Source: Ochrovirga pacifica
Lineage (GTDB): Bacteria; Bacteroidota; Bacteroidia; Flavobacteriales; Flavobacteriaceae
Assembly (NCBI RefSeq): GCF_000220525.1
Contig: NZ_AFPK01000068.1
Coordinates: forward strand, 1 to 64,000
Length of the DNA stretch: 64,000 nucleotides
Direction: 5' to 3'
Part shown: positions 4,223 through 38,388 of the stretch, piece by piece
How positions within the stretch are numbered: the stretch's first letter is position 1
Layout of the letters: every line of letters starts with the position of its first letter
Made by a program: the position numbers and the translations under genes
Notes under the pieces: model-generated
Database searches by the model: none
Seen by the model: the letters and a program-made list of their open reading frames with translations, nothing else
Told to the model about the DNA's origin: nothing

Positions 4223-4248
4223 AGCAAAGGGGATGAAATGTTAAAAAA

Positions 4249-4330: not shown

Positions 4331-4363
4331 AATAACAACTAATACTACTACTTATGGTTTAGT

Positions 4364-12660: not shown

Positions 12661-12665
12661 AAAAG

Positions 12666-14204: not shown

Positions 14205-14276
14205 TGCAATTAAGTCTAGCACTAAAGTTAAAGAATTAGCTGCACAAAGTGCAACAAATCAAAAAGAAGAAATAAA

Positions 14277-14301
14277 AAAGACCACTTGTAGAGTGGTCTT
14301 T
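14277..14301 (-). terminator. Terminator of trxB
   Basis: A 10-bp inverted repeat (14277-14286 with 14292-14301) lies 22 bases after the trxB stop. On the minus strand it is followed by a T-rich run (TTTTTTATT), as expected of an intrinsic terminator. Confidence 0.75.
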
Positions 14302-14323
14302 ATGTATTATTGGTAAAGGTAAC

Positions 14324-15271
14324 TTAGTCTAAGCTACCTAAATAACGTTCTGCATCCAAAGCAGCCATACAACCTGTACCTGCAGCAGTAACGGCTTGTC
14401 TGTACTCATGGTCTTGCACATCACCCGCAGCAAATACCCCAGGTTTGTTGGTTTTGGTAGATTTTCCTTTGGTGATTAAATATCCGGTCTCATCCATGTC
14501 CAATTGACCTTTAAAAATTTCTGTATTTGGTTTGTGACCAATAGCAATAAAAACTCCAGTTACAGGAATTTCATGTTTGTCTCCTGTTTTATTGTTAACA
14601 ACTCTAACTCCTTCGACTACATTATCACCTAAAACTTCATCTAGTTCAGTATTGAACAATACTTCTATATTTTCAGTTTTGTTAACTCTGTGTTCCATTG
14701 CTTTAGAGGCTCTAAAATAATCTTTTCTAACCAACATTGTTACTTTGTTACAAATGTTAGCTAGGTAAGTGGCTTCCTCTGCTGCTGTATCACCAGCTCC
14801 CACTACAACTACATCTTGTTTTCTGTAAAAAAAACCGTCACAAGTAGCACAAGCCGAAACACCACCACCTTTTAATTTCTCTTCACTTTCTAACCCTAGA
14901 TATTTAGCGGTAGCTCCTGTGGTAATAATTACGGTTTCTGCTTCAATTTGTTTAGAACCGTCAATAGTTACTTTGTGAATTCCTCCCACTTCATTACTAA
15001 AATCAACAGCAGTAGCCAAACCAAAACGAACTTCAGTTCCAAAACGTTCAGCCTGTTTTTTTAAATCCTCCATCATTGCTGTACCATCGGTTCCGTTTGG
15101 GTATCCAGGAAAGTTATCTACTTCTGTAGTAGTGGTTAACTGTCCTCCCATTTGCATTCCTGTATACATTACTGGGTTTAAGTCTGCTCTAGAAGCATAT
15201 ATAGCAGCAGTATAACCTGCAGGACCTGATCCGATAATCAAGCATTTTATTCTTTCAATAGTATTTGACAT
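14324..15271 (-). CDS. trxB: Thioredoxin-disulfide reductase
   Basis: This 315-residue FAD/NADPH flavoprotein has the N-terminal FAD motif GSGPAGYTAAIYASRA. The redox-active pair is Cys141-Ala-Thr-Cys144 in SACATCDGFF, and the NADPH motif is VVVGAGDTAAEEA (about 156). The C-terminal GVFAAGDVQD segment is also present. It reduces thioredoxin in the cytosol. It is the last chromosomal gene before the integrated island, and in the empty-site arrangement it would lie next to the tRNA-Pro gene. Size and motifs are those of the low-molecular-weight bacterial enzyme. Confidence 0.97.
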   Translation of the reverse strand: MSNTIERIKCLIIGSGPAGYTAAIYASRADLNPVMYTGMQMGGQLTTTTEVDNFPGYPNGTDGTAMMEDLKKQAERFGTEVRFGLATAVDFSNEVGGIHKVTIDGSKQIEAETVIITTGATAKYLGLESEEKLKGGGVSACATCDGFFYRKQDVVVVGAGDTAAEEATYLANICNKVTMLVRKDYFRASKAMEHRVNKTENIEVLFNTELDEVLGDNVVEGVRVVNNKTGDKHEIPVTGVFIAIGHKPNTEIFKGQLDMDETGYLITKGKSTKTNKPGVFAAGDVQDHEYRQAVTAAGTGCMAALDAERYLGSLD

Positions 15272-15420
15272 TTTTCTACGTTTTTAGAATTTATCCGTCG
15301 CTAAATTAATTTTTTTTATACAGTTAGATATAGCATTTGGCATAACTTTTTATGATGGAGCGATTGGAAGTGTTTATAAAGTAAAAAGGAGGTGCTATTT
15401 TTTGAAGGTGACCTAAAATA

Positions 15421-15454
15421 AAAAAGCCAAAACTTAAGAAAGTTTTGGCTTTTT
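15421..15454. terminator. Terminator originally serving the tRNA-Pro transcript
   Basis: A perfect 14-bp stem with a 6-base loop is edged by A5 and T5 runs and abuts the left copy of the island's 21-bp repeat. If the island is removed by joining the two repeats, this hairpin falls directly after the tRNA-Pro 3' end. It is therefore probably the tRNA transcript's own terminator, now displaced 23 kb by the insertion. The hairpin is observed; the reconstruction is inference. Confidence 0.7.
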
Positions 15455-15470
15455 GTCGGGGTGGCAGGAT
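15450..15470 (-). repeat. Left attachment-site repeat (copy of tRNA-Pro 3' end)
   Basis: The 21 bases match 38368-38388 exactly, and the shared core is ttttgtcggggtggcaggat. The right copy is the 3' end of tRNA-Pro plus the bases just beyond it. This copy lacks the rest of the tRNA. It marks the far end of the integrated island. Confidence 0.9.
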
Positions 15471-15648
15471 GACACCCAAACTGCCACTATGCAGTAAAAT
15501 CAATACTTTCAGAAGTAGACTAAAACAGTGTGAACCGAAATGTAGACCTATCTGTTAGTTTGAAATAGTATTTTTTATCTGAACGTCTTACTACAAATTT
15601 ACAATTTTAACTCCATTAAAACCAGTCAATTTACATCAAATATTATGA

Positions 15649-15846
15649 TTAATCTATTAAATATTTGTTGACAATTTCCTCTTCTATTCCGCTGTATTCA
15701 ACAAATTCTTTGATTGTAATAAATTGATATGACTCCTTTCCAAAGTAGTTTCTAATATCGTTTAAAAGCTTACGCCCATAACGTTCACTACGTCCTGTAA
15801 TACGCTGAATATCTTTTGGGTATATGCAAGCTCTTTTTGGGGTCAT
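15649..15846 (-). CDS. Small putative DNA-binding protein
   Basis: The protein has 65 residues. The segment DIQRITGRSERYGRKLLNDIRNY resembles a helix-turn-helix read as two basic helices (about residues 12-34), followed by an acidic C-terminal helix. It lies at the left edge of the island, 180 bases inside the attachment repeat, and is divergent from the plus-strand cassette that follows. Similar small proteins are common next to phage-like genes in Bacteroidota, but I do not know a function. It could regulate the cassette or the element end. Confidence 0.5.
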   Translation of the reverse strand: MTPKRACIYPKDIQRITGRSERYGRKLLNDIRNYFGKESYQFITIKEFVEYSGIEEEIVNKYLID

Positions 15847-16069
15847 AATACTTTATCTATGCTTTATCCGTACATCATCCATGCTTTATTGTTTTATGAT
15901 TATGGTGATGATGATGCGTTGTTAAAATGTTGGAAACCCGAATGGGTTTTCAATATTTTAATGACGTTTTTGGTTGTATCGGAATGAATGACCGAAAACG
16001 GAATTACTTTTTTAACAACGTGCTATAAAATTACGTGATTTGGTTTCATTAATCAAAAAACGAATTATT

Positions 16070-16825
16070 ATGGCAAAACAAACTGGAATTATTAAACTGA
16101 AAGGAACTATCGGTGGTATTTCCTTTTACAAAACGACTGACGGACATCTTGCACGCGAGAAAGGCGGTGTTGATGGCAATCGCATCGCAAATGATCCTGC
16201 GTTTCAGAGAACGCGTGAAAATGGCTCTGAATTTGGACGAGCAGGTAAAGGCGGTAAGCTCTTACGAAATGCTATTCGTATTCTTTTGCAAAATGCAAAG
16301 GACAAACGTGTGGTGTCTCGTTTGACGAAAACTTTGGTTGCGGTTACCAAAACCGACACAACCAATGAAAGAGGTTTAAGAACCTTACAGGATGGTGATT
16401 TAAGCTTATTAAACAGCTTTGAATTCAATTTGAATGGAAAGTTAGGTACAACACTTTTTGCTCCGTTCTCGAATGCTTTTGACCGTGTTTCTGGTGATGC
16501 TACGGTTAACCTTGATGCATTTTCTCCAACTGTTAGAATTGCAGCTCCTTCGGGAACCACGCATTTTAAAGTAGTAATGGGTGCTTCTGAATTGGATTTT
16601 GAGAACGAGACCTCGACATTTGAAAATGATGAGACTGCTATTCTACCATATACCGCTGCTGATACAGCTGCTATTGCCTTGACAGCTTCTTTGACCGCTA
16701 ACTCAACTTTGTCTGTTGTTCAGGTGTTGGGAATTGAGTTTTACCAAGAGGTAAATGGGCAAATGTACGAGCTTAAGAACGGTGCTTACAACGCTTTAGC
16801 AATTGTTATTGTAGATACTCCTTAA
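16070..16825 (+). CDS. Conserved hypothetical protein, first gene of the small island cassette
   Basis: This 251-residue protein starts MAKQTGIIKLKGTIGGISFY. The upstream TTG at 16040 is rejected in favour of the ATG that opens this conserved start. The N-terminal half is basic with many Gly, Arg and Lys residues (HLAREKGG to about 95). The C-terminal half is beta-rich and alanine/threonine-rich, like a structural protein. The gene is close-packed with three downstream genes (gap 2 bases, then overlaps). Base composition is more GC-rich than its neighbours, a sign of separate origin. I know no function; a phage structural or nucleic-acid-binding role is possible. Confidence 0.65.
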   Translation: MAKQTGIIKLKGTIGGISFYKTTDGHLAREKGGVDGNRIANDPAFQRTRENGSEFGRAGKGGKLLRNAIRILLQNAKDKRVVSRLTKTLVAVTKTDTTNERGLRTLQDGDLSLLNSFEFNLNGKLGTTLFAPFSNAFDRVSGDATVNLDAFSPTVRIAAPSGTTHFKVVMGASELDFENETSTFENDETAILPYTAADTAAIALTASLTANSTLSVVQVLGIEFYQEVNGQMYELKNGAYNALAIVIVDTP

Positions 16826-16827
16826 GT

Positions 16828-17274
16828 ATGGAATTAGTACTGCATAGAGCCTATTTTGAAGAGGGCACCAATGGTGCTCTCTTTACTTCTGGTAAATCTT
16901 TCGACTCCGCTCAAGACAGGTTTCTTTGTCATACTATTGAATTGCCCTGGAACGATAACAAACGAAATATTTCCTGTATTCCTGAAGGTGTTTATGAAGT
17001 TGAACCTCATTTTTCTAAACGGTTTAAACATCATTTGATTTTGAAGGGTGTCAAAGGTAGAAGTTTTATACTATTTCATCCTGCGAATGATGCGTTGAAA
17101 GAACTTCAAGGTTGTATTGCTCCAGTAACTTATTTGAATGGTCCCGGCAAAGGTATTTACTCTAAAAATGCCATGCAGAAACTCTTGTCTTTGGTGTATC
17201 AGGCTAAAGACCGAAAAGAACCAATTTTATTAACTATTAAATCTCAGAATTATGAACATTGTAGAACGCTATAA
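16828..17274 (+). CDS. DUF5675-like protein
   Basis: The 148-residue protein matches the pattern of the DUF5675 family: an opening TIELPWNDNKRNISCIPEGVY-like region (about 37-57), the ILFHPAND box (about 80-87) and the LQGCIAP box. The His/Cys spacing in these boxes recalls the L,D-transpeptidase/YkuD-like fold, so a cell-wall role has been guessed for the family. The stretch around 16905-16925, encoding FDSAQDRF, matches a dispersed Bacteroidota repeat and looks inserted in frame. The neighbours are two holin-like membrane proteins, which fits a lysis-type cassette. Confidence 0.7.
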   Translation: MELVLHRAYFEEGTNGALFTSGKSFDSAQDRFLCHTIELPWNDNKRNISCIPEGVYEVEPHFSKRFKHHLILKGVKGRSFILFHPANDALKELQGCIAPVTYLNGPGKGIYSKNAMQKLLSLVYQAKDRKEPILLTIKSQNYEHCRTL

Positions 17275-17494
17275 AAAACCAACTCCCAAATTCTTTAAAA
17301 CTTTACGAAATATTGGAATTGCTCTTGCTACAGCTGGCGGTGCGATTATAGCTGCACCAATTAGCATGCCTGCCATTGTGGTAACTATTGCTACTTATAT
17401 GACCGTTGCCGGAACTGTAGCCACCACAGTAAGTCAAGCAGTTGTTACTGATGATGAAAACACTGAAACAGATGAGAATGACGATGGACTATAA
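17252..17494 (+). CDS. Small membrane protein, holin-like
   Basis: The protein has 80 residues with two hydrophobic helices (about 20-40 and 43-63), a basic N-terminus and an acidic tail (DDENTETDENDD). It overlaps the end of the DUF5675-like gene by 23 bases and the start of the next gene, showing translational coupling. The layout resembles class II holins, but sequence alone cannot prove membrane-lesion activity. Confidence 0.6.
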   Translation: MNIVERYKKPTPKFFKTLRNIGIALATAGGAIIAAPISMPAIVVTIATYMTVAGTVATTVSQAVVTDDENTETDENDDGL

Positions 17495-17672
17495 CACCAA
17501 ATCTGCCATTATTGGTGGTACTTTCTTTTCATCAATTTTGAATATTGGTGTTGAGGATTTGATTACTACCATTGTTTTGGCTATTGTTGGTGCAATCGTG
17601 AGTTTCTTTGTTTCTCTAATACTTAAAAAACTGATCACTTTTCTTGGGGCAAAGTGTCGTAGGTGGAAGTGA
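17478..17672 (+). CDS. Small membrane protein, second holin-like gene
   Basis: About 64 residues from the ATG at 17478; a second ATG lies at 17484. There is one long or two short hydrophobic helices (ILNIGVEDLITTIVLAIVG and VSFFVSLILKKLITFL) and a basic C-terminus (KCRRWK). It overlaps the preceding gene by 17 bases. A terminator follows. It may work with the preceding small membrane protein as a holin/antiholin-type pair, which is inference from layout. Confidence 0.55.
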   Translation: MTMDYNTKSAIIGGTFFSSILNIGVEDLITTIVLAIVGAIVSFFVSLILKKLITFLGAKCRRWK

Positions 17673-17705
17673 TTATTGATGTGGCGCGGTGGAAAATATA
17701 AATAA

Positions 17706-17732
17706 AGGGCATTTGAAAAATGCTCTTTTTTT
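17706..17732 (+). terminator. Terminator of the small cassette
   Basis: GGGCATT (17707-17713) pairs with AATGCTC about 5 bases later, allowing one G-T pair, and is followed by T7. It ends the plus-strand cassette 16070-17672. Confidence 0.7.
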
Positions 17733-17751
17733 ATGCGCGGTGTTGAGGTGG

Positions 17752-17788
17752 ATGCCCCCTAACCCCCAAAGGGGGAATAGTGGGGCAT
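17752..17788. repeat. Nested palindrome, dispersed-repeat type
   Basis: ATGCCCC (17752-17758) pairs with GGGGCAT (17782-17788). Inside, CCCCC (17763-17767) pairs with GGGGG (17771-17775). The CCCCTAACCCCCAAAGGGG core is a widespread intergenic repeat in Bacteroidota genomes, so it is probably a REP-like copy rather than a gene-specific signal. Confidence 0.5.
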
Positions 17789-17874
17789 TTACCGCAGACA
17801 CAAGGCAAAACATTAATAATTGCTGTAACCTACACCGTTGAAATGGGTGGTGGGGAAAAGTGGTTCAACATAGC

Positions 17875-18759
17875 TTAATGTTCTTCTTTTATACTTTTAC
17901 TAATACCACTAATAAAGTCTTTGATTTCAACAGGTAGCAACTCAAATTTCTTTTTAGACTCATTAGAAATAAAACAAATATCATGTATCATTAAGGATGT
18001 TAAGTATATTGCTAATCGGACTAATGGATCTGTAAATTCTTTTGTTATTACTTTACCCCTAAAACCCTTAAAATATTCAAGTGAAGGATAGTTAGAATGC
18101 AAGTGAATAGAAGAATCTTTATATACATTAACAAATGCTCTTTGTTTGCAAGTATGTTTTACTAATTCAATTATTTTTAATGGCCTGACTTTATTTTCTA
18201 CTACTAAAAATCTCCAAGAAATTCTTTTCTTGGACAAGTTATAAATTTTCAATAGCTCACTATCTGATAAGGTGTTTTTATAATTTGAGGTTTCAATTTC
18301 ATTAATTGTTTTACTTATTTCAAGTTTATAACTATCTAAAATTTCTTTTGCACCTTCAAAATCATCTTCGTATATCTCTAATTTTTGTTTTTGAAAAAGA
18401 CCATCTAATTTCCACAATAAAAATCTAAATTTTTTTTCATCTGAAGTTTTAGGCTCAACAAAGATGTGATTAAAGGCAGAATAAGTTTCAATTATGGCTC
18501 TTATAGTTGAGTTTACTGTAAATAAATCATAACCTCGTTGCTTAATAACTTCTCCGGACTTTTTCCTTTCTATAATGCCTTTTGATAAATGAAAAAAAGA
18601 TGAAGAATGTATAGCGAATTTATCAATTAAAAGATTTGAATATTCTTGCCAGACAGGTATTTCTTCACTGCTTAATGGATAATAGGTCATGGTTAATGGA
18701 CCTAAAAGTAAGTATTCATAAAATTCTAACGGATTATCATATAAAACTTGCTCATTCAT
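17875..18759 (-). CDS. Hypothetical helical protein (possibly DUF5677-like)
   Basis: This 294-residue, mostly helical protein has no signal peptide. Notable segments are SSFFHLSKGIIERKK (about 52-66), TVNSTIRAIIETYSAFNHIF (about 81-100), HLHSNYPSLEYF (about 217-228) and a hydrophobic LAIYLTSLMIHDICF stretch (about 248-262). The helix pattern and His/Tyr placement recall the DUF5677/HEPN-like group, but this is a weak match. It lies in the defence part of the island, downstream of the RT pair on the same strand but 400 bases beyond the ncRNA terminator. It is probably a separate unit and might be another defence gene. Confidence 0.55.
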   Translation of the reverse strand: MNEQVLYDNPLEFYEYLLLGPLTMTYYPLSSEEIPVWQEYSNLLIDKFAIHSSSFFHLSKGIIERKKSGEVIKQRGYDLFTVNSTIRAIIETYSAFNHIFVEPKTSDEKKFRFLLWKLDGLFQKQKLEIYEDDFEGAKEILDSYKLEISKTINEIETSNYKNTLSDSELLKIYNLSKKRISWRFLVVENKVRPLKIIELVKHTCKQRAFVNVYKDSSIHLHSNYPSLEYFKGFRGKVITKEFTDPLVRLAIYLTSLMIHDICFISNESKKKFELLPVEIKDFISGISKSIKEEH

Positions 18760-18850
18760 AAATTTTTACTTCTTAAAAATGATAAATATAGTATTAATAA
18801 AAACGTAAGTTGATTGTAAAGCACTGATTTCAGTACGGTAAAGTGGTTAT

Positions 18851-18930
18851 TTTACATAATGGCGTTATAACTACAGCTTTGGAGATGCGGTGGGTGTAGC
18901 GGCTGCTATTATAACTACCCGTTATGTAAA
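18851..18930. repeat. Imperfect long inverted repeat in a gene-free stretch
   Basis: TTTACATAATGG (18851-18862) faces CCGTTATGTAAA (18919-18930), 11 of 12 paired. Inner arms GTTATAACTAC and ATAACTACCC point the same way. The rest of 18760-19156 holds no gene I can support. The stretch resembles integron attC-like remnants common in Bacteroidota, but the attC core motifs are not convincingly present. Confidence 0.4.
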
Positions 18931-19156
18931 CATAGCTTTGGGTAGTTTTTTGGTGTGCGCTTTGGGAACAGCTCTTTGCTTTTTTGTTTAACCTATTTTC
19001 TACAAATAATTCCTTTAAACAAAACAAGCAATGTGCTGTGTGAGGGTTGGCAGCCAAAAACTACAAGAGCGTTGGCAAGCGGAACAAACCAAAAGACAGA
19101 GGATTTTGAGGAACGAAAAAACTGGGTTTTGGGTTTGTGGGGAAATCAATAAATGT

Positions 19157-19296
19157 AAAAAAATAGGGTGAAGACTCTACCTTCACCCCTAAAAACTCTA
19201 AAAGTTTTGTTGGGGCTTGTGTGTGATAGTTACCAGAATAAACTACAAATTATGGCTTTCAAGAGTGTACTCAATTTCTTGAGTACGTTGCCCCAA
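19157..19296 (-). ncRNA. Candidate DRT3 template RNA
   Basis: Read on the minus strand, this RNA begins at the stop of the second RT gene. TTGGGGC (19290-19296) pairs with GCCCCAA (19210-19216), a 7-bp closing stem. Inside are a perfect 8-bp hairpin with a 4-base loop (19267-19286), a 5-bp hairpin (19227-19231 with 19241-19245) and the tract CACACACA (19218-19225), one base from the closing stem. After the domain comes an intrinsic terminator (8-bp stem 19166-19173 with 19181-19188, then TATTTTTTT). A CA-repeat template beside a double-stranded boundary is what a Drt3a-type enzyme needs to make a GT repeat. Transcription may be by read-through; a weak AATATTTG -7-like element lies at the 5' edge. 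Confidence 0.8.
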
Positions 19297-19301
19297 ATAT
19301 T

Positions 19302-21608
19302 TTAATAAACACTATGACCTCTTTTTGTGTTTAGTTCTTTCCCTAAATCATTTTCCTTCCAGCTGTAAAACCAATCTGAAGCATAGCTCGCAATTTTTTC
19401 AATGATGTCATTTTTATCTGCAATGCTTGTGCCCGCATCAAAAAACTTAATTTTGTCTAAAACTTGTCGTCTAAAATCTCTTATTTCTGCATCAGTAGTA
19501 CCAACATATGGACAAGTAAGTACATCTATCAATAAGAAAATATCTTCAGCATTATTCTTTTCAAAGTTATTAAACTTTTCGATAATTATTTTCTGAATAT
19601 CAGCTCTTATTACAGTGTATTTTTGATTAGAATCAACATTTATATAATTTAACAAAGAAATAATTGTGAAATAATTCATACTACTGTTAAGAATTTTGAC
19701 ATTTTGATTATCTATATGAAAAACTCGAAAGTGTTTATTTATTAATTCTTCTTCAAAACGATAATTTTCTCCTAACTCATTAATTATAGGTAATAAATAC
19801 AAAGTTTCTACTTCTGCATATTCAGACGAAAGACTTTTTTGAAATACTAATGAAATACCATCATATATTCTTTTGAAAATATTATGTTTTTTATCAAAAT
19901 CAAATGCTATGTATTTTAATTCTTCAGTACTCGCATTTGGGACTTTAACCAAATAGCTTTGTTTTGTACGCTCCTGATTTTTAATAAAATCAATAATTCT
20001 AAATAATATATGGCAAACTTTAATTGAATAGGTTACCCTTGGAAGAACAGAATAAATAAAAAATGTTAATTCAATTATTTCATTAATATTTTTAAATAAT
20101 TGATTATGGTATGACTTTAATTCTTTCTCTTGTTCTTTTATTTCTTCAAAAATTTCATCTAATTTTTCTTGATGTTTGGGTTTTTCATTTTCTTCAACAT
20201 CATCTAATTTTGTTTCTGTATCACGTTTCTGAACATACAAGTGAAGTACCGCTTCCTGTTCTTCTTGTATCTTTTTTATTAAACTTTTGAGCTTGTTGAA
20301 AATAATTGCCAAAAAGTAATTTTGTAGATCTTTGTAACTTGTTTCAGTTTTGGCCAAAATGGCTTTATAGTTAGTAATAATATCTTTGGCTGAATAATAT
20401 TTTAAACCAATTTGTTTTTTCATTTCCGAATCATAAAACTGAAAAATCATTGAATGTTCAATCAATTTTCTGATTTCCTCTTTGGCAATCGTAATATTTG
20501 TTATGATTGGTTTAGGAAGAATTTTAGTTTTAGAGTCATTAAAAAACAGATTGTATTCTTGTAGCTTGATTTTGTATAAGCTTAAAATTTCCGATTTAAT
20601 TTTATCATCGTTGTAAAAAACAAAAAAATCATCTACATATCTATAAATATCATAATCCTCCTTATACTTATAACCTTTACTATATAATTCTTTTTCAACA
20701 TTTTTATCAATTCTTTGCAAAATAAGTTCAGCAAATATTCTTGAAAACTCTGGACCAATTACAATACCATTTGTTTCATTGTAGTTCATTTGCTGCATTA
20801 CTCTATCAAACTTACCACCAAAGGAATCTTTATTGGTAAATAAATTATCCTTTACAATTTTCTTATTAGATAATGCCCAGGAAAGAGTATGTGTATAAAT
20901 ACTATCAAAACATCTTGAAATATCAAATTTCATCAAATTATCAAAACGTTTTTCTGCTCTTTGATACTCGTATGATTCATAAAACTCATAAATATTGCTA
21001 TATTTCTGATAGGAAAAGAATGTTTTCAAACTTGTATATTCTTTATCTGTCGTTTCAATTATTTCAATATCTTGATTTTTAGATTTCTTTTTTTTATTGG
21101 TATTATCTTTATAGTATTTTAATGATGAGACTTTACTCGGTTTTCTCAATGAAAATCTACTCAACTTTGTATTGTATAGAATTGTATTTTTATACTTATC
21201 ATAAAATCCTACCAGGTAAAGTTGGTTTATTGGATGAATTACGGTTAATTCCCTGTAATCATTGTCTTTATGAGTTATTTTGAATTTAAAAGGGATTGTT
21301 AAAAAAACCTTTTCAAAAGCTGTTTCGTTAAATTTGAAATAATCAAAATTTGTGTCATTTATAAAATTTACATTATTAGGAATTCCAAAAAGAGTTTGAA
21401 TCAATCTCTTTAATACTCCGGAATGGTCTTTGCTAAACTGAATAGCTCTATTGCTTTCATCAATAACTACTTTATTTTTGACTAAAAAATTGTAAAAATG
21501 CCTATTTGAAAAAAATGGCGGAACCTCATAAGGCAATATATCAGAAAGAACAACTCTTTCTTTCTTATATCCTATATTATGTCCTGATTTTCTTCTCATC
21601 TTTTCCAT
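19302..21608 (-). CDS. drt3b: Defence-associated reverse transcriptase, DRT3 second subunit (Drt3b/UG8-like)
   Basis: The protein has 768 residues. The RT palm is clear: motif A FDISRCFDSIYTHT (about 227-240), motif B NGIVIGPEFSRIFAE (about 278-292) and motif C YRYVDDFFVFYND (about 317-329). A long helical C-terminal part follows, with a charged coiled-coil (about 440-510). The IGPEFSRIFAE form of motif B is that of the Abi/UG reverse transcriptases rather than of group II introns. The gene overlaps the upstream RT gene by 13 bases. In DRT3 systems, as I recall the literature, this subunit makes the complementary dinucleotide-repeat strand without a nucleic-acid template. The pairing and ncRNA support the type 3 call. 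Confidence 0.85.
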   Translation of the reverse strand: MEKMRRKSGHNIGYKKERVVLSDILPYEVPPFFSNRHFYNFLVKNKVVIDESNRAIQFSKDHSGVLKRLIQTLFGIPNNVNFINDTNFDYFKFNETAFEKVFLTIPFKFKITHKDNDYRELTVIHPINQLYLVGFYDKYKNTILYNTKLSRFSLRKPSKVSSLKYYKDNTNKKKKSKNQDIEIIETTDKEYTSLKTFFSYQKYSNIYEFYESYEYQRAEKRFDNLMKFDISRCFDSIYTHTLSWALSNKKIVKDNLFTNKDSFGGKFDRVMQQMNYNETNGIVIGPEFSRIFAELILQRIDKNVEKELYSKGYKYKEDYDIYRYVDDFFVFYNDDKIKSEILSLYKIKLQEYNLFFNDSKTKILPKPIITNITIAKEEIRKLIEHSMIFQFYDSEMKKQIGLKYYSAKDIITNYKAILAKTETSYKDLQNYFLAIIFNKLKSLIKKIQEEQEAVLHLYVQKRDTETKLDDVEENEKPKHQEKLDEIFEEIKEQEKELKSYHNQLFKNINEIIELTFFIYSVLPRVTYSIKVCHILFRIIDFIKNQERTKQSYLVKVPNASTEELKYIAFDFDKKHNIFKRIYDGISLVFQKSLSSEYAEVETLYLLPIINELGENYRFEEELINKHFRVFHIDNQNVKILNSSMNYFTIISLLNYINVDSNQKYTVIRADIQKIIIEKFNNFEKNNAEDIFLLIDVLTCPYVGTTDAEIRDFRRQVLDKIKFFDAGTSIADKNDIIEKIASYASDWFYSWKENDLGKELNTKRGHSVY

Positions 21609-23080
21609 ATTGAATTGATTTCAGCAATGCCGAATTGTAATATCCCTTCGTTATTCTGATTATTTACATCATTTCGTTTTCTGTTATGACTTTTATACTT
21701 TTTGTTTTTTAATGGTAATACTTGAAATGTTTTCTTCTTAAATCCTTCTGCAAAAGAATATTTAAGGATTGTTTCCTTTTCATCAGTTGTTAATCCAGCT
21801 CTATTGATATGCCATTTAAGTCTTGTTTGAAGTTTTTGAAGAGATACATCATTGTTCAAAAATGGATTAGAATAATATATTCCAACAAAAACTTTATCCT
21901 TGTTATTTCTTAATTTTGTATTTGAAGTGAGATAATTGATCCGAGCTGATAATAATTTAAAAGCGTTCTTTCTATTGTGTTTCTTTTTCTTTTCGAAATG
22001 CTGAAATGATAATTTGATTTTTTTGAAATATTTGTCGATTTTAGTTTTTGAAAGCCTAACACTTAAATCTTTACTTTTTATACTGCCGTTAGTTTTATAT
22101 GTAATTACACTTCCTATATCATAACCTAAATATTGAATTGTTTTGCTAACGAAATTAGGATTATTGTCATTAAATCTTAAATCAAAAACTCCTTCTAAAA
22201 GGTTATACTCTTCTGTTTTTTTAACATTCAAAACAAGTTCTTCACTTGTTATTAAATTTGTTAGTTTAGCTTTATAATCAGTTAATTGAGCTGGCTCAAT
22301 ATTTTTAGATTTAGGAACGAAAATAGCAACTATATCATCTACATATCTTGCGTAGTAAACTAAATCATCAAGTTCCCTAATTTTGTTATCTACACTTCTC
22401 ATAAAGAGTTCAGATAAATAGGCACTTATACCAACACCTCGTGGAACACCTTTGGCTATTTCAGGATTAGTCTGACCGGTTAAACTATTATAGCTCGTAA
22501 AAATTTGATGGATAAACTTTTTTGTTTTGATACTCAGCAAATAATCGCTATCAATTTTGTTCAATAATTTCTTTTGAGGAATTGATTCGTAAAAACTTTT
22601 AATATCTGTACGGATAACATATTTAGGAAAGTTGTCTTCTAATAGATTTAATAACTCACTTAATATCGCATATCTTGAAGACTGTTTTACGTTATAAGTC
22701 TTGTTTATATTGTCTTGAATTTTTTTAGAGATAAAAAAATTATGGACATTTTTTTCAAATACATAACTCTGGCCTCCATAATTACCTCCTAATTCTAAAT
22801 TAATAGTATGGGAATTAATTTCATCAGCAACCGTATCTAAAACACCAGAAACAAGTACATCCCTTTCTTTTTTTAATTTATTCTTTTCAGTATAAAGTAG
22901 TCTTTTTGCATCAAACTCTGTTTCTTGTTGTATTTGTTTCCCAATATTTTTTAATTCCCCAACTTTAGCTAAAGAATCTACAAAATCTTCTTTGAATTTT
23001 TTCTCGACATTAATTCCTTTTCGATTTTCTTTATCGAATATTTCCTGAAACGATTTAGATGAAAATGATTGGTCTAACAT
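21596..23080 (-). CDS. drt3a: Defence-associated reverse transcriptase, DRT3 first subunit (Drt3a/UG3-like)
   Basis: The 494-residue RT has motif A VIRTDIKSFYESIP (about 155-168), motif B AKGVPRGVGISAYLSEL (about 209-225), motif C YYARYVDDIVAIF (about 242-254) and a following LNVKKTEEYNL. The C-terminal thumb region is basic. No maturase, endonuclease or DGR repeat is nearby, which argues against a group II intron or a diversity-generating element. It is the first gene of the RT pair and overlaps its partner by 13 bases. In DRT3 this subunit is reported to copy an ACAC-type ncRNA template into a GT repeat. The CA tract found downstream fits that. Confidence 0.85.
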   Translation of the reverse strand: MLDQSFSSKSFQEIFDKENRKGINVEKKFKEDFVDSLAKVGELKNIGKQIQQETEFDAKRLLYTEKNKLKKERDVLVSGVLDTVADEINSHTINLELGGNYGGQSYVFEKNVHNFFISKKIQDNINKTYNVKQSSRYAILSELLNLLEDNFPKYVIRTDIKSFYESIPQKKLLNKIDSDYLLSIKTKKFIHQIFTSYNSLTGQTNPEIAKGVPRGVGISAYLSELFMRSVDNKIRELDDLVYYARYVDDIVAIFVPKSKNIEPAQLTDYKAKLTNLITSEELVLNVKKTEEYNLLEGVFDLRFNDNNPNFVSKTIQYLGYDIGSVITYKTNGSIKSKDLSVRLSKTKIDKYFKKIKLSFQHFEKKKKHNRKNAFKLLSARINYLTSNTKLRNNKDKVFVGIYYSNPFLNNDVSLQKLQTRLKWHINRAGLTTDEKETILKYSFAEGFKKKTFQVLPLKNKKYKSHNRKRNDVNNQNNEGILQFGIAEINSIWKR

Positions 23081-23096
23081 TTTTTAATCAAAACTT

Positions 23097-23217
23097 GAAT
23101 AAATAAAAGAGCCAATGAAATTTCATTAGCTCTTAATATTATATAATATACTTTGAGACTATTTGGCAGCCTAAATATACAAATTATGTGTTTGGTTTCT
23201 TATGGTTTACCATAATT
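23097..23217 (-). promoter_or_regulatory. Promoter/leader module of the DRT3 operon
   Basis: The stretch upstream of drt3a shares 18 identical bases (23172-23189, taaatatacaaattatgt on plus) with the Wadjet upstream region. It also shares a hairpin block and a GGTTTACC motif. A 28-bp near-perfect palindrome (23106-23133) sits 26 bases before the start codon and is followed by TTTTATTTATT on the minus strand, like an attenuator terminator. TATATTTA within the shared block is close to the -7 consensus. Confidence 0.6.
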
Positions 23218-23324
23218 TACATTTTCATCTCCTTTTATCTTCATGTTTCTTGTAGAACCAATCAAATTGAAACTACCACTATCTTCTATCTGAAATGCTT
23301 TTGCCATTCATAGCACCTTTATTC

Positions 23325-24275
23325 TTATAATTCACTTTTTAATTCCAACAACTCTATCAAATCCATAGATTCTTCTTCTACCCATTCATCATTTGAGATA
23401 AGCTGTTTAATTATATCTGTTTGAAATCTTGTAAAATCATCTTTCTTCAGTTTAGAAAAATCTTCCCTTTTCCATTTACTGTTATGGTTAGGTGAATTGA
23501 CAGGAAGCGCATGACATAGGTCTTTCGGTTCTAACAAATTCACATCAACTCCTTTTAAATTAAAGATTTCCTTTATTCTTGAAAAGATAGTTAAACCGTG
23601 ATAATCCCAATCACAAAAATAAAATATTGGATGTGAGATTTTTTCAAGTGATAAGTCTAATAAAGGTTTCGTATTATTACCTCCAACATACCATAACTCT
23701 ACACCACGCTTTTTATATACAGTAGGCACTTTCAAACAAGCAATATTTTCACAAATAACAATGACTTGAGGGTTTATACAATCTACTACGATACGCCAAA
23801 AATTATTTTTAGGGTCTTTTTCCGGAAACTCATCTATGTCTAAAAGTTTTAAAACATCTTTTTTTAATCCTGGTTTACCCGATAAGTATTTCGCTCCTTT
23901 TCTTTTAAAAACCCTACTTGAAAATGTGTATTCTGTTGTTAAGGTTTCTTTTAGTTTTTCCTTATTATTAAATATGAATATTAATGATTCGAGGTCTGAC
24001 TTATCATACCTTTTATGAGCATTATTATCTATTCCTGATTTTTCGAAGAAGCTATTATAGTATTCAAAAGTTTCTTTGAAATGTTGCTCATAAAAAAGGC
24101 TAAATCTTGGTGTAGACTCTAAGAAATTATGATTGCCTGTCTTATATTTTATCAACTTCTTTTGGTTGTATATAACCTGGTTAATAAAATCATCATTCAA
24201 CATCTTTAACCGTGTCTTTCCAGCTATGTACAATTCATTTAATCCTTTAAGGTATTTCCATTCTATATCTTTCAA
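23325..24275 (-). CDS. jetD: Wadjet nuclease subunit JetD
   Basis: The 316-residue protein has a C-terminal Toprim-like region: VIVICENIACLKV (about 168-180) supplies the glutamate and FCDWDYHGLTIF (about 211-222) the DxD pair. This is the arrangement of JetD, which cuts plasmid DNA after loop extrusion. The start is TTG, since a TAG lies just upstream in frame and no ATG precedes the conserved YIAGKTRLKML opening. It is shorter than many JetD proteins of about 380 residues. It follows jetC by 9 bases and is the last gene of the operon. Confidence 0.85.
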   Translation of the reverse strand: MKDIEWKYLKGLNELYIAGKTRLKMLNDDFINQVIYNQKKLIKYKTGNHNFLESTPRFSLFYEQHFKETFEYYNSFFEKSGIDNNAHKRYDKSDLESLIFIFNNKEKLKETLTTEYTFSSRVFKRKGAKYLSGKPGLKKDVLKLLDIDEFPEKDPKNNFWRIVVDCINPQVIVICENIACLKVPTVYKKRGVELWYVGGNNTKPLLDLSLEKISHPIFYFCDWDYHGLTIFSRIKEIFNLKGVDVNLLEPKDLCHALPVNSPNHNSKWKREDFSKLKKDDFTRFQTDIIKQLISNDEWVEEESMDLIELLELKSEL

Positions 24276-24284
24276 AATTGTATT

Positions 24285-27200
24285 CTATTTAGAGTCTATA
24301 AAAACCGGTATTGGTGGATAATTCACTTTTTTATCTTCTTCTAAGTTGTTTTGAAGTAAATAAATGTTTTGACTTTCTTTATTTACCTTATTTGGCGAGA
24401 TGGAAAGTGATAATAATTGATAGTGGTTATCCTTTGCAATTTCGTAGAGCATATCAAAATTACTGCCTAATCCTTCTGCTTCGTCTATAGGCATAAAACG
24501 CACTCCTGACTTAATTTTACTATTATTTTCAATTAAAGATAATCTTGCTATACAGAGTAAAGCTATGGCCGAATATGTTTGACTTGTACTACCTGCATTT
24601 TTTCCTTTATTCGATTCAATTGTAAACTTTAAATCATAATATGATTTAGGGCTTAGTAATTGTTTATAGGTTGGATGCGTATTTTTTGGACCACCACATC
24701 TATGAAAAGCTTCAATCATTTTCTCTTCTAACGAGGCAAACTTTTCTAATCCTTTGCTAAATACTTTTAAATCATCTAAAAGATTGTTGGCTAAACCTAA
24801 AGAAGATTCTTCATTGATTTTTTCAATAAAATCTTGCATCCAATCTCTAGGATAAGATTTGTTAATATCCTGTCTTAAATAGGCTTTATGATTACCTGTG
24901 ATAAGTTTATTGTCATCAATTAAAAAATTCTTTACTCTTCTAACATAATCCAATTGATTACTAACTTCTGCATTTACCTCATCAATAATAGTATTTAGTC
25001 TTTGAAGCTTTCTTCCATTAAGTTCTTGATTTTTTTGATTAATGTCTTTTAGTCTTTTATCAATATTCTCAATAATTTCTCTGTCTAAAGTTTCTCCATC
25101 TTTAAAAATCTCTGGTGGTAATATTTCTTGACAAAGACCCGTAAAATCCCCTGTATTTTCATAACGCAAATAATTATTTTCCATATAACTTCTCGCAATT
25201 GAATTATATGCTCCTATATATGCGGTATTACTTTTATTATGTTTGACTTCAAGAGTATTTACAGAGAATTCTGTTAACTCAATTTCAGGGTGTTTTTCAT
25301 TTAGTATATCATTTTCAAAGTTTGATTTATACTTATCTGAAAGTTCTTTTAATTCGTTTTCAAAACTTAATGATTTTTCATCTAATTGGATAAGTAACTC
25401 AGCTGGATTAATGTACTTTTTCTGAACAAGTAAAAAATCTTGAAACGTTTGATAATAATTTTCAGAATTGGATAATGAATCCAATATCAAACTGCTATCA
25501 TTTGTTGTTTTATGTTGGTATTCGTATTTCTTTTCAAACTCATTAAGATTCTTGAGGTATTCAACCTTAGGAAAATCTTGTAATGATGTTTTAAGGTTAG
25601 TTTGTAGTGTTTTCAGCTTACTTCTTTTTGTATCTACTTCAACGTACTTTTTCTTCGCCAGAGAATAGTTATTGGATAATTCCGTTGCTTTTACAAATAA
25701 TGAAGTATACTCATTAATTTCCTTTAAATCAAGTTTATAAAAATCGTAAGTTTTAGTATCATTTATGGCATCTTTTGAATTCCAAGCCGTAATATATTCT
25801 TTTGGGTTTTCTAGGTCACCAAAAGTATCTTGTAACACATTCAATTTACTTTCTTTTTCCTTTAGCTTTTCTATTTCCTCACCTAATGTTATACTTTGTT
25901 TTTTGAAAATATTCTTGATTTCACCTTTGTCTAAAGTATTAAATATAGGTTCTTGAATAAATGGAATAAACTCCTTAATGCCGTTAAGGTCTAGCCAAAA
26001 TCCATCAGCATTCTTTTTATAAATTGAAAAATTTTCAAATAGCTCTTTGGGTGCTGGAATATATTTTTCTTTAATGTCTACAGGCTCATCTACAATGATA
26101 AAGTCTTGGTACTTGTTTAGAATACTTTCTTCTTCTACAGAAAGCTCTCGATTCAAATTCAAAGCCCAATATGCAAGTGATTTTTCATTTTCTATATCAT
26201 TGATGCTATTAAGTCTTTCTTTATTCTCAATATCCTTTAAGATAGTAGCTCTCTCAGCTTGTAATTTGATTAGAATATCGTTATCCCAAGTTCTGCTTTG
26301 AAAGAAATATAGTAGCTTTTTATCTGATAGTTTTTGTTTAAGAATATTGATTTTATCTATTATTGTTTTTGATTTATGATACTTTTCGTACTTCTTTAAA
26401 ATATCATCTTTACTACAATTTAATAGCTTCATCCAGCTATGAAATTTTTCTACAGCTTTATTCTTTTCCTCCAAATCCTTTTGGGCAGCAAAAGCACTAT
26501 TGAACTCATCCTCAATTTCGTTTAATTCCGAGATGATTTTATCTACTTTACTTTGAGCTATTGTTTCTAAAAAAGAAAGATTATACTCACTTCTGTAAAA
26601 ATTATTGAGTGTATCAATAACCTCTTTATGAGTAGCTATTGACTGTTTTTTTGTAAAAACATATTTGGCTAATAAAAACTCCTTTAGAGTGGCTTCTTCT
26701 TCATCCTTTTTATTTAGTAAATCCACTAAATCATTATGCTTGTTTTTGAGTTTTTCTATTTCGGCAGAATTATCCTTAAATTTTTCAACATCAGAGCTTA
26801 GTTCTTTTACGGCTTCATTAAATTGTTTTTCAAACTTCTTTTCGGACTCATCACCAAATAAAAACTCTTTTAATTTATCACTTTTAGAAGTGTCCAAGGA
26901 TTCTCTAGAAAAGGCCTGAATAATTTTAGAGTAGTTTTTTAATACCTTATCGTTTTTTGAAATATTTACCGGAATGATATTATTTTCATCATTACATAGT
27001 ATTTTATGATACTTATTTGGGGTTGACCAAGAAGCACAAGTGAAACCTAAAGAACCAAAAACATGATCCTTAAATTGTTCAATAGGAAGTATCTTTTTAT
27101 TATCAATAAAATGGGAAACACCTATTGGCCTGTTAAAAGGAACTAATTTGGTTTCTTCAGAAAAGTCATTTCCATTCTGAATAATGAACATATGAGAAGC

Positions 27201-27524
27201 TCCTGTACTTTCTAGATAAATACCAATCACAATGAATTTATTTTCTTCAACTTCTATATTAAGAAAAGCATATCCAAAATCAGTCCCTCTACCATCGGTT
27301 TTTAATACCATTGTTTTTGGCAACCTATCATCTGTACTTTTTGTGGGAGAATGAAATGCTCCAGTTCCCACAAAAATTAATTGTAGTAAGTCTGAAATTA
27401 AACTTTTGCCAGAACCACCTTCTCCTACAAAATCTGTTCGAAAAGAATTAAACTCATAATCGAACTCTTGATGATGTATAATATTGAGCGTTGATAGTCT
27501 TTTGATTTTAGGATATTTTATCAT
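24285..27524 (-). CDS. jetC: Wadjet SMC-like ATPase JetC
   Basis: This 1079-residue SMC/MukB-type motor has Walker A GEGGSGKS (residues 34-41) near the N-terminus and a long coiled-coil region (about 215-870) with a central hinge-like break. The C-terminal head carries a signature-like STSQTYSAIALLCIARLSL (about 975-993) and Walker B VRFMPIDEAEG (about 1005). It drives DNA loop extrusion for sensing circular plasmid DNA. It overlaps jetB by 4 bases (ATGA type) and jetD follows. Order A-B-C-D and sizes match Wadjet; the subtype (I, II or III) is not settled here. Confidence 0.88.
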   Translation of the reverse strand: MIKYPKIKRLSTLNIIHHQEFDYEFNSFRTDFVGEGGSGKSLISDLLQLIFVGTGAFHSPTKSTDDRLPKTMVLKTDGRGTDFGYAFLNIEVEENKFIVIGIYLESTGASHMFIIQNGNDFSEETKLVPFNRPIGVSHFIDNKKILPIEQFKDHVFGSLGFTCASWSTPNKYHKILCNDENNIIPVNISKNDKVLKNYSKIIQAFSRESLDTSKSDKLKEFLFGDESEKKFEKQFNEAVKELSSDVEKFKDNSAEIEKLKNKHNDLVDLLNKKDEEEATLKEFLLAKYVFTKKQSIATHKEVIDTLNNFYRSEYNLSFLETIAQSKVDKIISELNEIEDEFNSAFAAQKDLEEKNKAVEKFHSWMKLLNCSKDDILKKYEKYHKSKTIIDKINILKQKLSDKKLLYFFQSRTWDNDILIKLQAERATILKDIENKERLNSINDIENEKSLAYWALNLNRELSVEEESILNKYQDFIIVDEPVDIKEKYIPAPKELFENFSIYKKNADGFWLDLNGIKEFIPFIQEPIFNTLDKGEIKNIFKKQSITLGEEIEKLKEKESKLNVLQDTFGDLENPKEYITAWNSKDAINDTKTYDFYKLDLKEINEYTSLFVKATELSNNYSLAKKKYVEVDTKRSKLKTLQTNLKTSLQDFPKVEYLKNLNEFEKKYEYQHKTTNDSSLILDSLSNSENYYQTFQDFLLVQKKYINPAELLIQLDEKSLSFENELKELSDKYKSNFENDILNEKHPEIELTEFSVNTLEVKHNKSNTAYIGAYNSIARSYMENNYLRYENTGDFTGLCQEILPPEIFKDGETLDREIIENIDKRLKDINQKNQELNGRKLQRLNTIIDEVNAEVSNQLDYVRRVKNFLIDDNKLITGNHKAYLRQDINKSYPRDWMQDFIEKINEESSLGLANNLLDDLKVFSKGLEKFASLEEKMIEAFHRCGGPKNTHPTYKQLLSPKSYYDLKFTIESNKGKNAGSTSQTYSAIALLCIARLSLIENNSKIKSGVRFMPIDEAEGLGSNFDMLYEIAKDNHYQLLSLSISPNKVNKESQNIYLLQNNLEEDKKVNYPPIPVFIDSK

Positions 27525-28171
27525 TTCAATTCTTTAAATATTTCATCACGACTTAGGATTTCCTTTTCATAAAAATTTATAAACCTATCAAATGCAGGAA
27601 GTAATTCGAACTCATCTTCATTTATTTTTACCCAACCAATTTTCTGAAATTCTACCAAGGCAGATTTGATTTCCCTATCGATGGCTTCATCATTTAATTT
27701 ACTAGGGTTTTTATTCTTAGACTTACCTATCAATCTATAAATACCTGGTTTAATGTCTTCATAATCAATTCGCATTTTTCTCTTTAATTCAGATATTGAG
27801 TTTAGATCTATTTCTTTTTGAATGTATATTATTTCATAAATAATGAACCCAATAATAACGTGTTCATTTTTAAGATAATGTCTATGGTCTCTTCTGATAT
27901 TACCTCTATTGTGCGGATCATTGAAATTGAGGTAGTAATATTTGTCCGGATATTCTCCGCCAGATGATAAGTCTACTTTAAAAAGCTCCTTATAATAAAG
28001 TTTTAAACTTTCTTCATTTTCAACAATATAGTTATACAAGTCTATTTGCCTTCCCTCTTGCTGAATATGAACACCATCCTTTAATTTATAATCAATTTCA
28101 GCAAACAATTCTTTTGTTTCACTATTCTGTAAAAAACTTTCTATAGTGGTTTTTGAACTTCCATTTTCCAT
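27521..28171 (-). CDS. jetB: Wadjet MukE-like (KITE) subunit JetB
   Basis: The protein has 216 residues with two winged-helix-like parts, as in MukE/DUF4194 proteins. Visible are a conserved IGFIIYEIIYIQKE helix (about 108-121) and the LVEFQKIGWVKINEDEFELLPAF region (about 170-192), the usual winged-helix tail. It bridges the kleisin JetA and the ATPase. The start overlaps the end of jetA by 31 bases, and its stop overlaps jetC by 4. The call rests mainly on size, operon place and helix pattern. Confidence 0.8.
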   Translation of the reverse strand: MENGSSKTTIESFLQNSETKELFAEIDYKLKDGVHIQQEGRQIDLYNYIVENEESLKLYYKELFKVDLSSGGEYPDKYYYLNFNDPHNRGNIRRDHRHYLKNEHVIIGFIIYEIIYIQKEIDLNSISELKRKMRIDYEDIKPGIYRLIGKSKNKNPSKLNDEAIDREIKSALVEFQKIGWVKINEDEFELLPAFDRFINFYEKEILSRDEIFKELK

Positions 28172-29487: not shown

Positions 29488-29498
29488 TGAAACTTAAA

Positions 29499-29615
29499 TA
29501 AATAAAAAAGCCAATGAAATATCATTAGCTATTAAAAACTTTGAGTGCTTAGAGATTTTTTAATACACTAAATATACAAATTATGTAGTTGATTTATTAC
29601 GGTTTACCTTATTTT
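29499..29615 (-). promoter_or_regulatory. Promoter/leader module of the Wadjet operon
   Basis: Homologous to the module at 23097-23217. It contains the 18-base identical block at 29569-29586 and the palindrome-like GCCAATGAAAT-ATCATTAGC hairpin about 20 bases before the jetA start, then a T-rich run on the minus strand. The GGTTTACC motif lies near its distal end. The preceding ATPase gene ends at 29634, so this is a new transcription unit. Confidence 0.6.
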
Positions 29616-29633
29616 GTTAAAATTTGTTTACAG

Positions 29634-38142: not shown

Positions 38143-38174
38143 AGTTGTCGTCTTTTTGTTAAACATTCATCGAG

Positions 38175-38367: not shown

Positions 38368-38388
38368 TTTTTGTCGGGGTGGCAGGAT
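38368..38388 (-). repeat. Right attachment-site repeat
   Basis: Identical to 15450-15470. It covers the last 15 bases of the tRNA-Pro gene plus a few bases beyond, so insertion leaves the tRNA intact. Confidence 0.9.

What the first reader, a model, noticed from the sequence alone, without database searches (positions are those of the whole stretch)
19157..23080. DRT3-like two-RT operon with a readable CA-repeat template RNA
Two adjacent RT genes overlap by 13 bases. Right after the second, on the same strand, lies a compact RNA with a closing stem, inner hairpins, a CACACACA tract one base from the stem and a perfect intrinsic terminator. The RT motifs and pairing are seen; that DRT3 uses an ACAC template to make dinucleotide-repeat DNA is knowledge as I recall it; the joining of the two is inference. 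The RNA is unannotated by ORF methods and would be a divergent Bacteroidota example.
Basis: partly seen in the sequence, partly recalled or inferred. Interest (0 to 1): 0.92.

Follow-up and report, generated by a model that had tools for sequence, protein, structure and literature searches.

The report
DRT3 antiphage operon with pseudoknotted RNA
This is a member of a known bacterial antivirus system in which two reverse transcriptases and a small RNA are thought to build a simple repeated DNA; the new part is that its RNA is of a compact, knotted type unlike that of the Escherichia coli systems closest to the solved structures.

Summary
The two minus-strand genes are equivalog-level Drt3a (403 bits, cut-off 200) and Drt3b (722 bits, cut-off 350). 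A folded RNA lies directly downstream (z -4.3), with CACACACA one base from its closing stem and a terminator behind it. DRT3, its downstream RNA, its ACACAC template and its mechanism are already published (PMC13174585; Deng et al. 2026 not readable here), so this is not a new system.

Added here: the Drt3b gate, catalytic and primer residues named in the preprint section I read are kept in the window protein. A CA tract lies downstream of drt3b in 101 of 101 distinct loci, 100 credibly. DRT3 RNAs fall into two kinds that follow a split of the Drt3b tree. The group with the E. coli systems closest to the solved structures has a long RNA and no pseudoknot signal. The window and most loci examined have a compact RNA with a covarying pseudoknot between the terminator-hairpin loop and a segment inside the closing stem. 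The papers I could search do not mention it. The operon sits on a probable 22.9-kb island at tRNA-Pro. New variant of a known kind.

The parts
21596..23080 (-). drt3a (UG3-type RT, 494 aa), predicted to copy the ACAC RNA template into poly(dGdT)
   Evidence: NF041747 403 bits, cut-off 200; PADLOC E 8.8e-105; in 93 aligned Drt3a D159, G215, V247, D248, D249 are kept in 93 of 93, Y246 is Y in 82 and F in 11
19302..21608 (-). drt3b (UG8-type RT, 768 aa), predicted protein-templated and protein-primed poly(dCdA) synthase; E28, R119, D229, R290, D326/D327, Y768 correspond to E. coli E22, R71, D182, R241, D278/D279, Y666
   Evidence: NF041748 722 bits, cut-off 350; PADLOC E 1.8e-179; residues mapped by counting on the alignment, the tyrosine by its C-terminal place
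19157..19301 (-). DRT3 ncRNA, compact type (extent inferred: from the drt3b stop codon to the end of the U run)
   Evidence: fold z -4.34; model R1 from 21 other RNAs scores 17.4 bits here with filters off, but misses it with default filters
19290..19296 (-). P1, 5' arm of closing stem (UUGGGGC)
19210..19216 (-). P1, 3' arm of closing stem (GCCCCAA)
19267..19286 (-). H1, hairpin between P1 and the pseudoknot segment, seen in the window's clade
   Evidence: 8 of 8 pairs in the window, compensatory changes among relatives; only 2 of 7 with the arms tried for L066
19262..19266 (-). pseudoknot 5' segment ACUCU
   Evidence: 4-5 of 5 pairs in 9 of 9 clade RNAs; group tests
19226..19246 (-). hairpin ending at the template (GUAGUU-loop-AACUAU), candidate template boundary
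19218..19225 (-). template tract CACACACA
   Evidence: sequence; conserved
19192..19208 (-). middle hairpin AAAACUU-UUA-GAGUUUU
   Evidence: fold
19165..19189 (-). terminator hairpin, followed by A and U7 (19163-19157)
   Evidence: fold, sequence
19174..19178 (-). pseudoknot 3' segment AGAGU in the terminator-hairpin loop
15450..15470 (.). 21-bp direct repeat, probable left end of the island that carries the operon
38368..38388 (.). 21-bp direct repeat at the 3' end of tRNA-Pro (38373-38448 -), probable right end of the island

Best explanation
A DRT3 antiphage system of the compact-RNA lineage, carried on a probable integrated island. Drt3a binds the downstream RNA and copies its single-stranded CACACACA repeatedly into poly(dGdT); the hairpin that ends at the template acts as the boundary, and realignment on the repeat allows continued addition. 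Drt3b, without a nucleic-acid template, adds dC and dA alternately from its C-terminal tyrosine Y768, with E28 and R290 as the base gates. The two strands anneal to repetitive double-stranded DNA, whose build-up is the toxic or signalling output during infection. Shown here: gene identity, gate, catalytic and primer residues, template, closing stem, pseudoknot covariation in the group. Inferred from the published E. coli systems: the activities and the defence outcome. Proposed here: the terminator-hairpin loop folds back on the segment beside the closing stem (pseudoknot) and so holds the template region in shape.
For: Families. Solved relatives: 26cz and 9z6y. Published mechanism: PMC13174585 and review PMC13314766. 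Residues: in 98 full-length Drt3b of 101 distinct loci R119, D229, R290, D326 and D327 are kept in 98 of 98; E28 is E in 96, D in L061 and R in L034, whose gene start seems to lie on another contig; the terminal Tyr aligns in 97 of 98, and the other (L100) also ends in Tyr. Template. Pseudoknot: on 21 RNAs its 6 pairs are 95.2% formed, 4 of 6 with changes on both sides; true partners score 12.1 against 8.4 (sd 0.37, maximum 9.4 of 300) when partners are swapped among RNAs, 86 of 91 compact RNAs scored; a second version with 93 RNAs gives 12.1 against 7.8.
Against: No expression or activity data. With default filters model R1 does not find the window RNA in the 64-kb window; its only match there is elsewhere, E 0.18. 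The right place is found only when 501 bases are searched with filters off (17.4 bits, E 1.8e-4). In the window's own clade the pseudoknot core CUC/GAG does not vary, so there the support is weak: one compensatory change (L069), G-U changes, and one mismatch each in L067 and L070. 22 of 93 RNAs classed compact score under 10. In one search one of five measures (number of standard pair types) is below its shuffles (22 against 26.6), and the 21 RNAs were picked by me after looking at the sequences. Conservation of R290 and of YVDD in the loci is partly built in, because the search patterns contain them.
Confidence: 0.92

Rival explanations
1. A decayed or silent DRT3 copy left on a degenerating island.
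For: Gene remnants occur nearby in a close relative: upstream of DRT3 in L065 only a 29-residue stretch of the JetD-like gene was matched.
Against: Both RTs are full length with the tested residues intact; the RNA helices are intact, and relatives with Drt3b 85%, 88% and 96% identical keep the same elements.
Confidence: 0.05
2. The CA tract and stems are only a 3' UTR with an ordinary terminator; the pseudoknot complementarity is a by-product of conserved sequence.
For: The last hairpin does look like a normal intrinsic terminator; in the window's clade the pseudoknot core does not vary.
Against: Tract credible in 100 of 101 loci. Closing stem, pseudoknot and terminator stem together: 74 cells changed on both sides against 26.4 in shuffles, 0 of 500 as high. 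Swapping partners among RNAs lowers the pseudoknot score well below the real one; the long-RNA group, as a contrast, shows no difference (7.31 against 7.28, 13 RNAs).
Confidence: 0.03
3. The pseudoknot is regulatory, controlling termination or read-through of the operon, and not part of the working RNP.
For: One partner is the loop of the terminator-like hairpin itself.
Against: It is also present where the last hairpin is not followed by a clear U run, e.g. L123 and L131 in A4; it lies beside the template closing stem. Neither point is decisive.
Confidence: 0.15

Closest known systems
DRT3 of E. coli, structure 26cz and preprint PMC13174585 (L174 is a close, not identical, match: 1308.7 bits over its 667 aa)
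   Same: Gene order, downstream RNA, (AC)3 template near a closing stem; in L174 the gate, catalytic and primer residues stand at the published numbers.
   Different: 26cz scores only 254 bits with the window's Drt3b. In L174 the template starts 128 nt after the stop codon and the last hairpin has a short CGCAAG loop; the long group shows no pseudoknot signal.
DRT3 structure 9z6y/9z6z (depositors name Drt3a and Drt3b)
   Same: Both RTs match the window.
   Different: Of the four loci tested against it, L007 and L171 score best, and both are in the long-RNA group; its own RNA was not seen.
Compact-type DRT3 of E. coli GYB01 (L175; plasmid CP083496, L059, has the same RNA)
   Same: Short RNA with CACACAC beside the closing stem and, by eye, UCAGGC/GCCUGA as pseudoknot (the script did not pick it, score under 10); on the window's side of the tree split.
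   Different: About a third identical in Drt3b to the window (33.8% for the plasmid copy); no hairpin corresponding to H1 seen.
DRT10 and DRT9 (Class 2 DRT with repeat-templating ncRNA; PMC12632851, passages read)
   Same: [quoted passage not shown] repeated realignment (DRT10).
   Different: One RT; the DRT10 RNA lies upstream of a SLATT gene; templates differ.

Membership tests
DRT3 | UG3-type RT (Drt3a) | tested here: met
   NF041747 403 bits, cut-off 200
DRT3 | UG8-type RT (Drt3b) beside it | tested here: met
   NF041748 722 bits, cut-off 350; 13-base overlap
DRT3 | ncRNA downstream with (AC)3 template next to a closing stem | tested here: met
   by sequence and fold, not by expression
DRT3 | Drt3b gates E22, R241 and stacking R71 | tested here: met
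   E28, R290, R119
DRT3 | C-terminal priming tyrosine (Y666) | tested here: met
   Y768, last residue
DRT3 | ncRNA matches the published covariance model | not testable with these tools
   The model is not held; Rfam has no match in 12000-30000 at gathering score
DRT3 | poly(dGdT) and poly(dCdA) made; defence against phage | not testable with these tools
   needs experiment
Compact, pseudoknotted DRT3 RNA group (defined here) | pseudoknot between terminator-hairpin loop and segment inside P1 | tested here: met
   ACUCU/AGAGU, 5 of 5 pairs in the window; group tests
Compact, pseudoknotted DRT3 RNA group (defined here) | Drt3b on the compact side of the tree | tested here: met
   12 against 91 split, support 0.976; window clade of 9, support 1.0

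The most novel reading that the evidence does not exclude
DRT3 exists as two deep lineages with differently built RNPs: a long-RNA lineage, which includes the E. coli systems closest to the solved structures, and a compact lineage in which the terminator hairpin is itself part of the enzyme's RNA core, docked by a conserved pseudoknot that fixes the ACAC template in Drt3a, so that transcription termination and assembly of the template domain are one step.
Probability: 0.35. Interest if true: 0.6.

Novelty: new variant of a known kind. Interest (0 to 1): 0.42.

Why it matters
DRT3 is a system in which one DNA strand is templated by RNA and the other by protein side chains. In the loci examined both codes, the ACAC tract (100 of 101) and the Drt3b gates (R290 98 of 98, E28 96 of 98), stay fixed while the RNA around the template changes in sequence but keeps its pairing. 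That makes the pseudoknot directly testable by compensatory mutation, for instance in an E. coli version (L175) that can be moved into laboratory strains, and it offers a second RNP to compare with the solved ones.

Tried and rejected
Rfam at gathering score: no family in 12000-30000. Viral contigs with the window's Drt3b alone: no relative; with alignment A2: 8. Model R1 with default filters missed the window RNA. In 73 other loci it gave 61 matches at E up to 1: 59 begin within about 100 nt of the drt3b stop codon, 2 lie elsewhere (L104 minus strand, L058 at 7655); 14 loci had none, including the 6 long-RNA loci given. Of the window's clade it found L064, L066, L067, L068, L070 (E 0.0022-0.81) and missed L063, L065, L069.

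Search for a template that changes together with the Drt3b gates: none found in these loci. MFE hairpin GCCA/UGGU before the template: set aside in favour of a hairpin ending at the template, found in 9 of 9 clade members, weakest in L063 (4 pairs, 2 nt away); over 91 RNAs the mean score at the template is 9.6 against 5.5 at random places downstream. MAFFT alignment A3 of the window's clade shifts the pseudoknot segment, so helix arms were placed by hand; for L066 the H1 arms tried do not pair (2 of 7). A conserved third gene: seven window proteins (six of the island set and the DUF5677 protein) were sought in the 93 loci L058-L150 (at most 4 kb on either side); matches were a JetD fragment in L065 and distant integrase matches in four loci. 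The L035 CACACA downstream hit: rejected as coding.

Rows dropped or moved: L001 (the window itself) was not parsed, and 7 duplicates were removed before the count of 101; L010, L059, L149 (short or broken Drt3b) before the residue count; L005, L078, L082, L122, L136 had no hairpin or stem. In one search L059 was left out as the same RNA as L175; L173 counted as compact only because its annotated stop lies further downstream; L087 counted as long by offset (130 nt). For the tree I set the long label by hand: L087, whose RNA looks compact and scores 15, was left out of it, and L171-L174 were put in.
Full report
WHAT IS THERE. Two genes on the minus strand overlap by 13 bases: 21596-23080 (494 aa) and 19302-21608 (768 aa). 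Directly behind the second, on the same strand, lies a 145-nt stretch; folded with a few flanking bases (161 nt) it is more stable than each of 200 shuffles (z -4.34). Its parts, in order: P1 5' arm 19296-19290, hairpin H1 19286-19267, ACUCU 19266-19262, a hairpin that ends at the template 19246-19226, CACACACA 19225-19218, one A, P1 3' arm 19216-19210, a middle hairpin 19208-19192, a terminator hairpin 19189-19165 with AGAGU in its loop (19178-19174), A, and U7 (sequence; helices).

GENE IDENTITY. NCBIfam equivalogs Drt3a (403 bits, cut-off 200) and Drt3b (722 bits, cut-off 350); PADLOC agrees. The only PDB sequence matched by the first protein at E up to 0.001 is Drt3a of 9z6y; the best two of 11 for the second are 26cz and Drt3b of 9z6y. 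In four of the five plasmid records fetched first, the relatives are annotated drt3a and drt3b (the fifth has a broken drt3b).

MECHANISM ALREADY IN PRINT. In preprint PMC13174585 I read the abstract, the section on the Drt3b structure and passages found by word search. It reports a downstream ncRNA whose ACACAC is copied by DRT3a into poly(dTdG), and a Drt3b that makes poly(dCdA) without nucleic-acid template from Y666, with E22, R71 and R241 at the active site. Of the review PMC13314766 I saw the abstract, part 1 of 2 of its section 4, and passages; it describes Deng et al. 2026, which is not held. So neither the system nor its layout is new.

DOES THE WINDOW KEEP THE WORKING PARTS. Counting on the alignment with 26cz puts E22, R71, D182, F187, R241, Y276, V277 and D278 at E28, R119, D229, F234, R290, Y324, V325 and D326; Y666 corresponds by place to the last residue, Y768. 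Held locus L174 (E. coli, 667 aa, a close but not identical match to 26cz, 1308.7 bits) carries E, R, D, R, YVDD and Y at the published numbers 22, 71, 182, 241, 276-279 and 666, which checks the numbering. In 98 full-length Drt3b (of 101 distinct loci) R119, D229, F234, R290, Y324, D326 and D327 are kept in 98 of 98; V325 is V in 95 and I in 3; E28 is E in 96, D in L061, and R in L034, whose N-terminus seems to lie on another contig. The terminal tyrosine aligns in 97, and the remaining one (L100) also ends in Y. The selection used patterns with IGPEFSR and YVDD, so conservation of R290 and of YVDD is partly built in for those loci; the loci came from a profile instead.

THE TEMPLATE. Of 108 parsed loci (window included), 101 are distinct downstream of drt3b. 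All 101 have (CA)3 or (AC)3 within 250 nt; 50 shuffles give 11.7 on average, 22 at most; opposite-strand (GT)3 occurs in 3. L035 is an exception in substance: its tract is inside the next gene. No other dinucleotide template was seen in these loci.

TWO KINDS OF RNA. In 91 of 101 loci the tract starts less than 100 nt after the stop codon. A FastTree tree of 103 Drt3b proteins has one branch (support 0.976) that separates the 12 proteins that I had labelled long (11 with a long RNA, plus L035) from the other 91; the window's clade of 9 has support 1.0. The label was set by hand: L087, with an offset of 130 nt but a compact-looking RNA and a pseudoknot score of 15, was not labelled long and falls among the 91. 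L174, the close match to 26cz, is in the long group; 9z6y scores best with L007 (448 bits) and L171 (380 bits) of four loci tried, both in the long group. The loci were gathered by likeness to the window, so 91 to 12 is not a census. Among the 14 strong profile matches (E below 1e-60, own genome left out) 11 are compact by offset and 3 are L007, L034 and L035 (offsets).

THE PSEUDOKNOT. In compact RNAs a segment just inside the P1 5' arm is complementary to the loop of the last hairpin, in many different spellings: CCGUC/GACGG, CGCUCA/UGAGCG, CUGAC/GUCAG, CCAGA/UCUGG, CAAACUUC/GAAGUUUG. On 21 aligned RNAs (A4, picked by me from the compact ones) P1, pseudoknot and terminator stem together are 96.4% paired, with 74 cells changed on both sides against 26.4 in shuffles (0 of 500 as high), covariation score 0.618 against 0.321 (0 of 500), and 12 pairs with a change on both sides against 8.9 (3 of 500). 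One measure goes the other way: 22 further pair types against 26.6. Sliding partners by 1-3 columns drops pairing to 26-49%. The pseudoknot helix alone is 95.2% paired, with changes on both sides in 4 of 6 pairs. A test without alignment: real partners score 12.09 on average, partners swapped among RNAs 8.44 (sd 0.37, maximum 9.43 of 300), 86 of 91 scored. A second version gives 12.07 against 7.84 (93 RNAs, 71 at 10 or more against 35.6 with swapping), while 13 long-offset RNAs give 7.31 against 7.28 (6 at 10 or more against 4.5; L171, L172 and L174 are among these 6). 22 of the 93 score under 10; for some of these (L119, L134, L175) I see the pairing by eye in a hairpin the script did not pick. 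The helices of A4 were chosen after inspection, which favours them; the swap test does not have that bias.

IN THE WINDOW'S CLADE. The pairing is ACUCU/AGAGU, 5 of 5 in the window and 4-5 of 5 in all 9 RNAs, with one compensatory change (L069 A-U for U-A) and G-U changes; P1 changes in compensation at its third pair. Hairpin H1 sits between P1 and the pseudoknot segment here, unlike in most compact RNAs; for L066 the arms tried for it do not pair. Taken alone this clade would be weak evidence; its weight comes from the same element at the corresponding place in the wider group.

R1, built from the 21 RNAs of A4 without any of the window's clade, matched just after drt3b in 59 of 73 other loci at E up to 1. 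It did not find the window RNA with default filters, and scored it 17.4 bits in the right register in a 501-base search with filters off. The window RNA is a divergent member.

SURROUNDINGS. A 21-bp repeat at 15450-15470 and at 38368-38388 (3' end of tRNA-Pro) brackets 22.9 kb with a tyrosine integrase (36892-38166), RteC (31346-32188), and a condensin-like set upstream of DRT3: MksE 27521-28171 (Pfam 1.5e-20), a 1079-aa protein 24285-27524 without a family match in three libraries, a 448-aa protein 28141-29487 with only a weak match, and a JetD-like protein 23325-24275 (weak: Pfam 21.6 bits, cut-off 22; PADLOC 2.5e-5). The trxB gene lies beside the left repeat. Of the 19 relatives' trxB loci held, 8 have a tRNA-Pro gene within the stretch held (about 1.5 kb on either side of trxB), among them G002, whose trxB is 88% identical; 11 have none. 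That is what an unoccupied site would look like in the 8, but I did not align the junction.

PRINTED RECORD OF THE PSEUDOKNOT. 'pseudoknot' does not occur in the text of PMC13174585 or PMC13314766. A search for DRT3 with pseudoknot gave two papers: one on DRT2 (seen only as a listing) and the DRT10 preprint, whose single use concerns telomerase RNA. Figures, supplements and Deng et al. were not seen, so I do not claim that it is unpublished.

VERDICT. A sound, well-read DRT3 locus; a new variant at the RNA level of a known system. Interest 0.42.

Noticed in passing
L177:2507-2625 (+), upstream of L177:2630-3943 and 3951-5852: Outlier DRT3-like pair (Drt3b E 7.7e-116, Drt3a 239 bits with UG17 172 bits). 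No credible RNA downstream, but a folded RNA upstream (z -4.29) with a GGGCGAGG/CCUCGCCC closing stem and AAAACACAACACAUUA before its 3' arm: a 5-nt repeat in place of the dinucleotide. One of 294 genomes of its class at E 1e-30.
   Followed up: partly
L180:2572-6025 and L181 (Pediococcus and Lactiplantibacillus plasmids): Head-to-head pair of RTs (Drt3a 240 bits, Drt3b 399 bits in PADLOC for L180; annotated only as RNA-directed DNA polymerase). A folded RNA with ACACAC lies between them on the minus strand, upstream of the Drt3a-like gene (L180:3750-3960, z -5.66). A possible DRT3 layout of Bacillota.
   Followed up: partly
window 23325-29487 (-): Four-gene condensin-like set directly upstream of DRT3: MksE and (weakly) JetD matched; the 448-aa and 1079-aa proteins are called MksF and MksB only by gene order, from memory. 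Perhaps a divergent Wadjet-type system.
   Followed up: partly
window 15450-38388: Probable 22.9-kb island at tRNA-Pro with 21-bp repeats, integrase, RteC and HTH_17 protein; trxB and tRNA-Pro lie together in 8 of 19 relatives' loci.
   Followed up: partly
L171-L174 (E. coli): drt3 beside ogr/Delta-like, polarity-suppression or tyrosine-integrase genes; I recall these as marks of P4-like satellites.
   Followed up: no
window 23097-23137: Inverted repeat between the JetD-like gene and drt3a, about 20 bases before the drt3a start, looking like a terminator; the drt3 promoter was not located (seen by eye).
   Followed up: no
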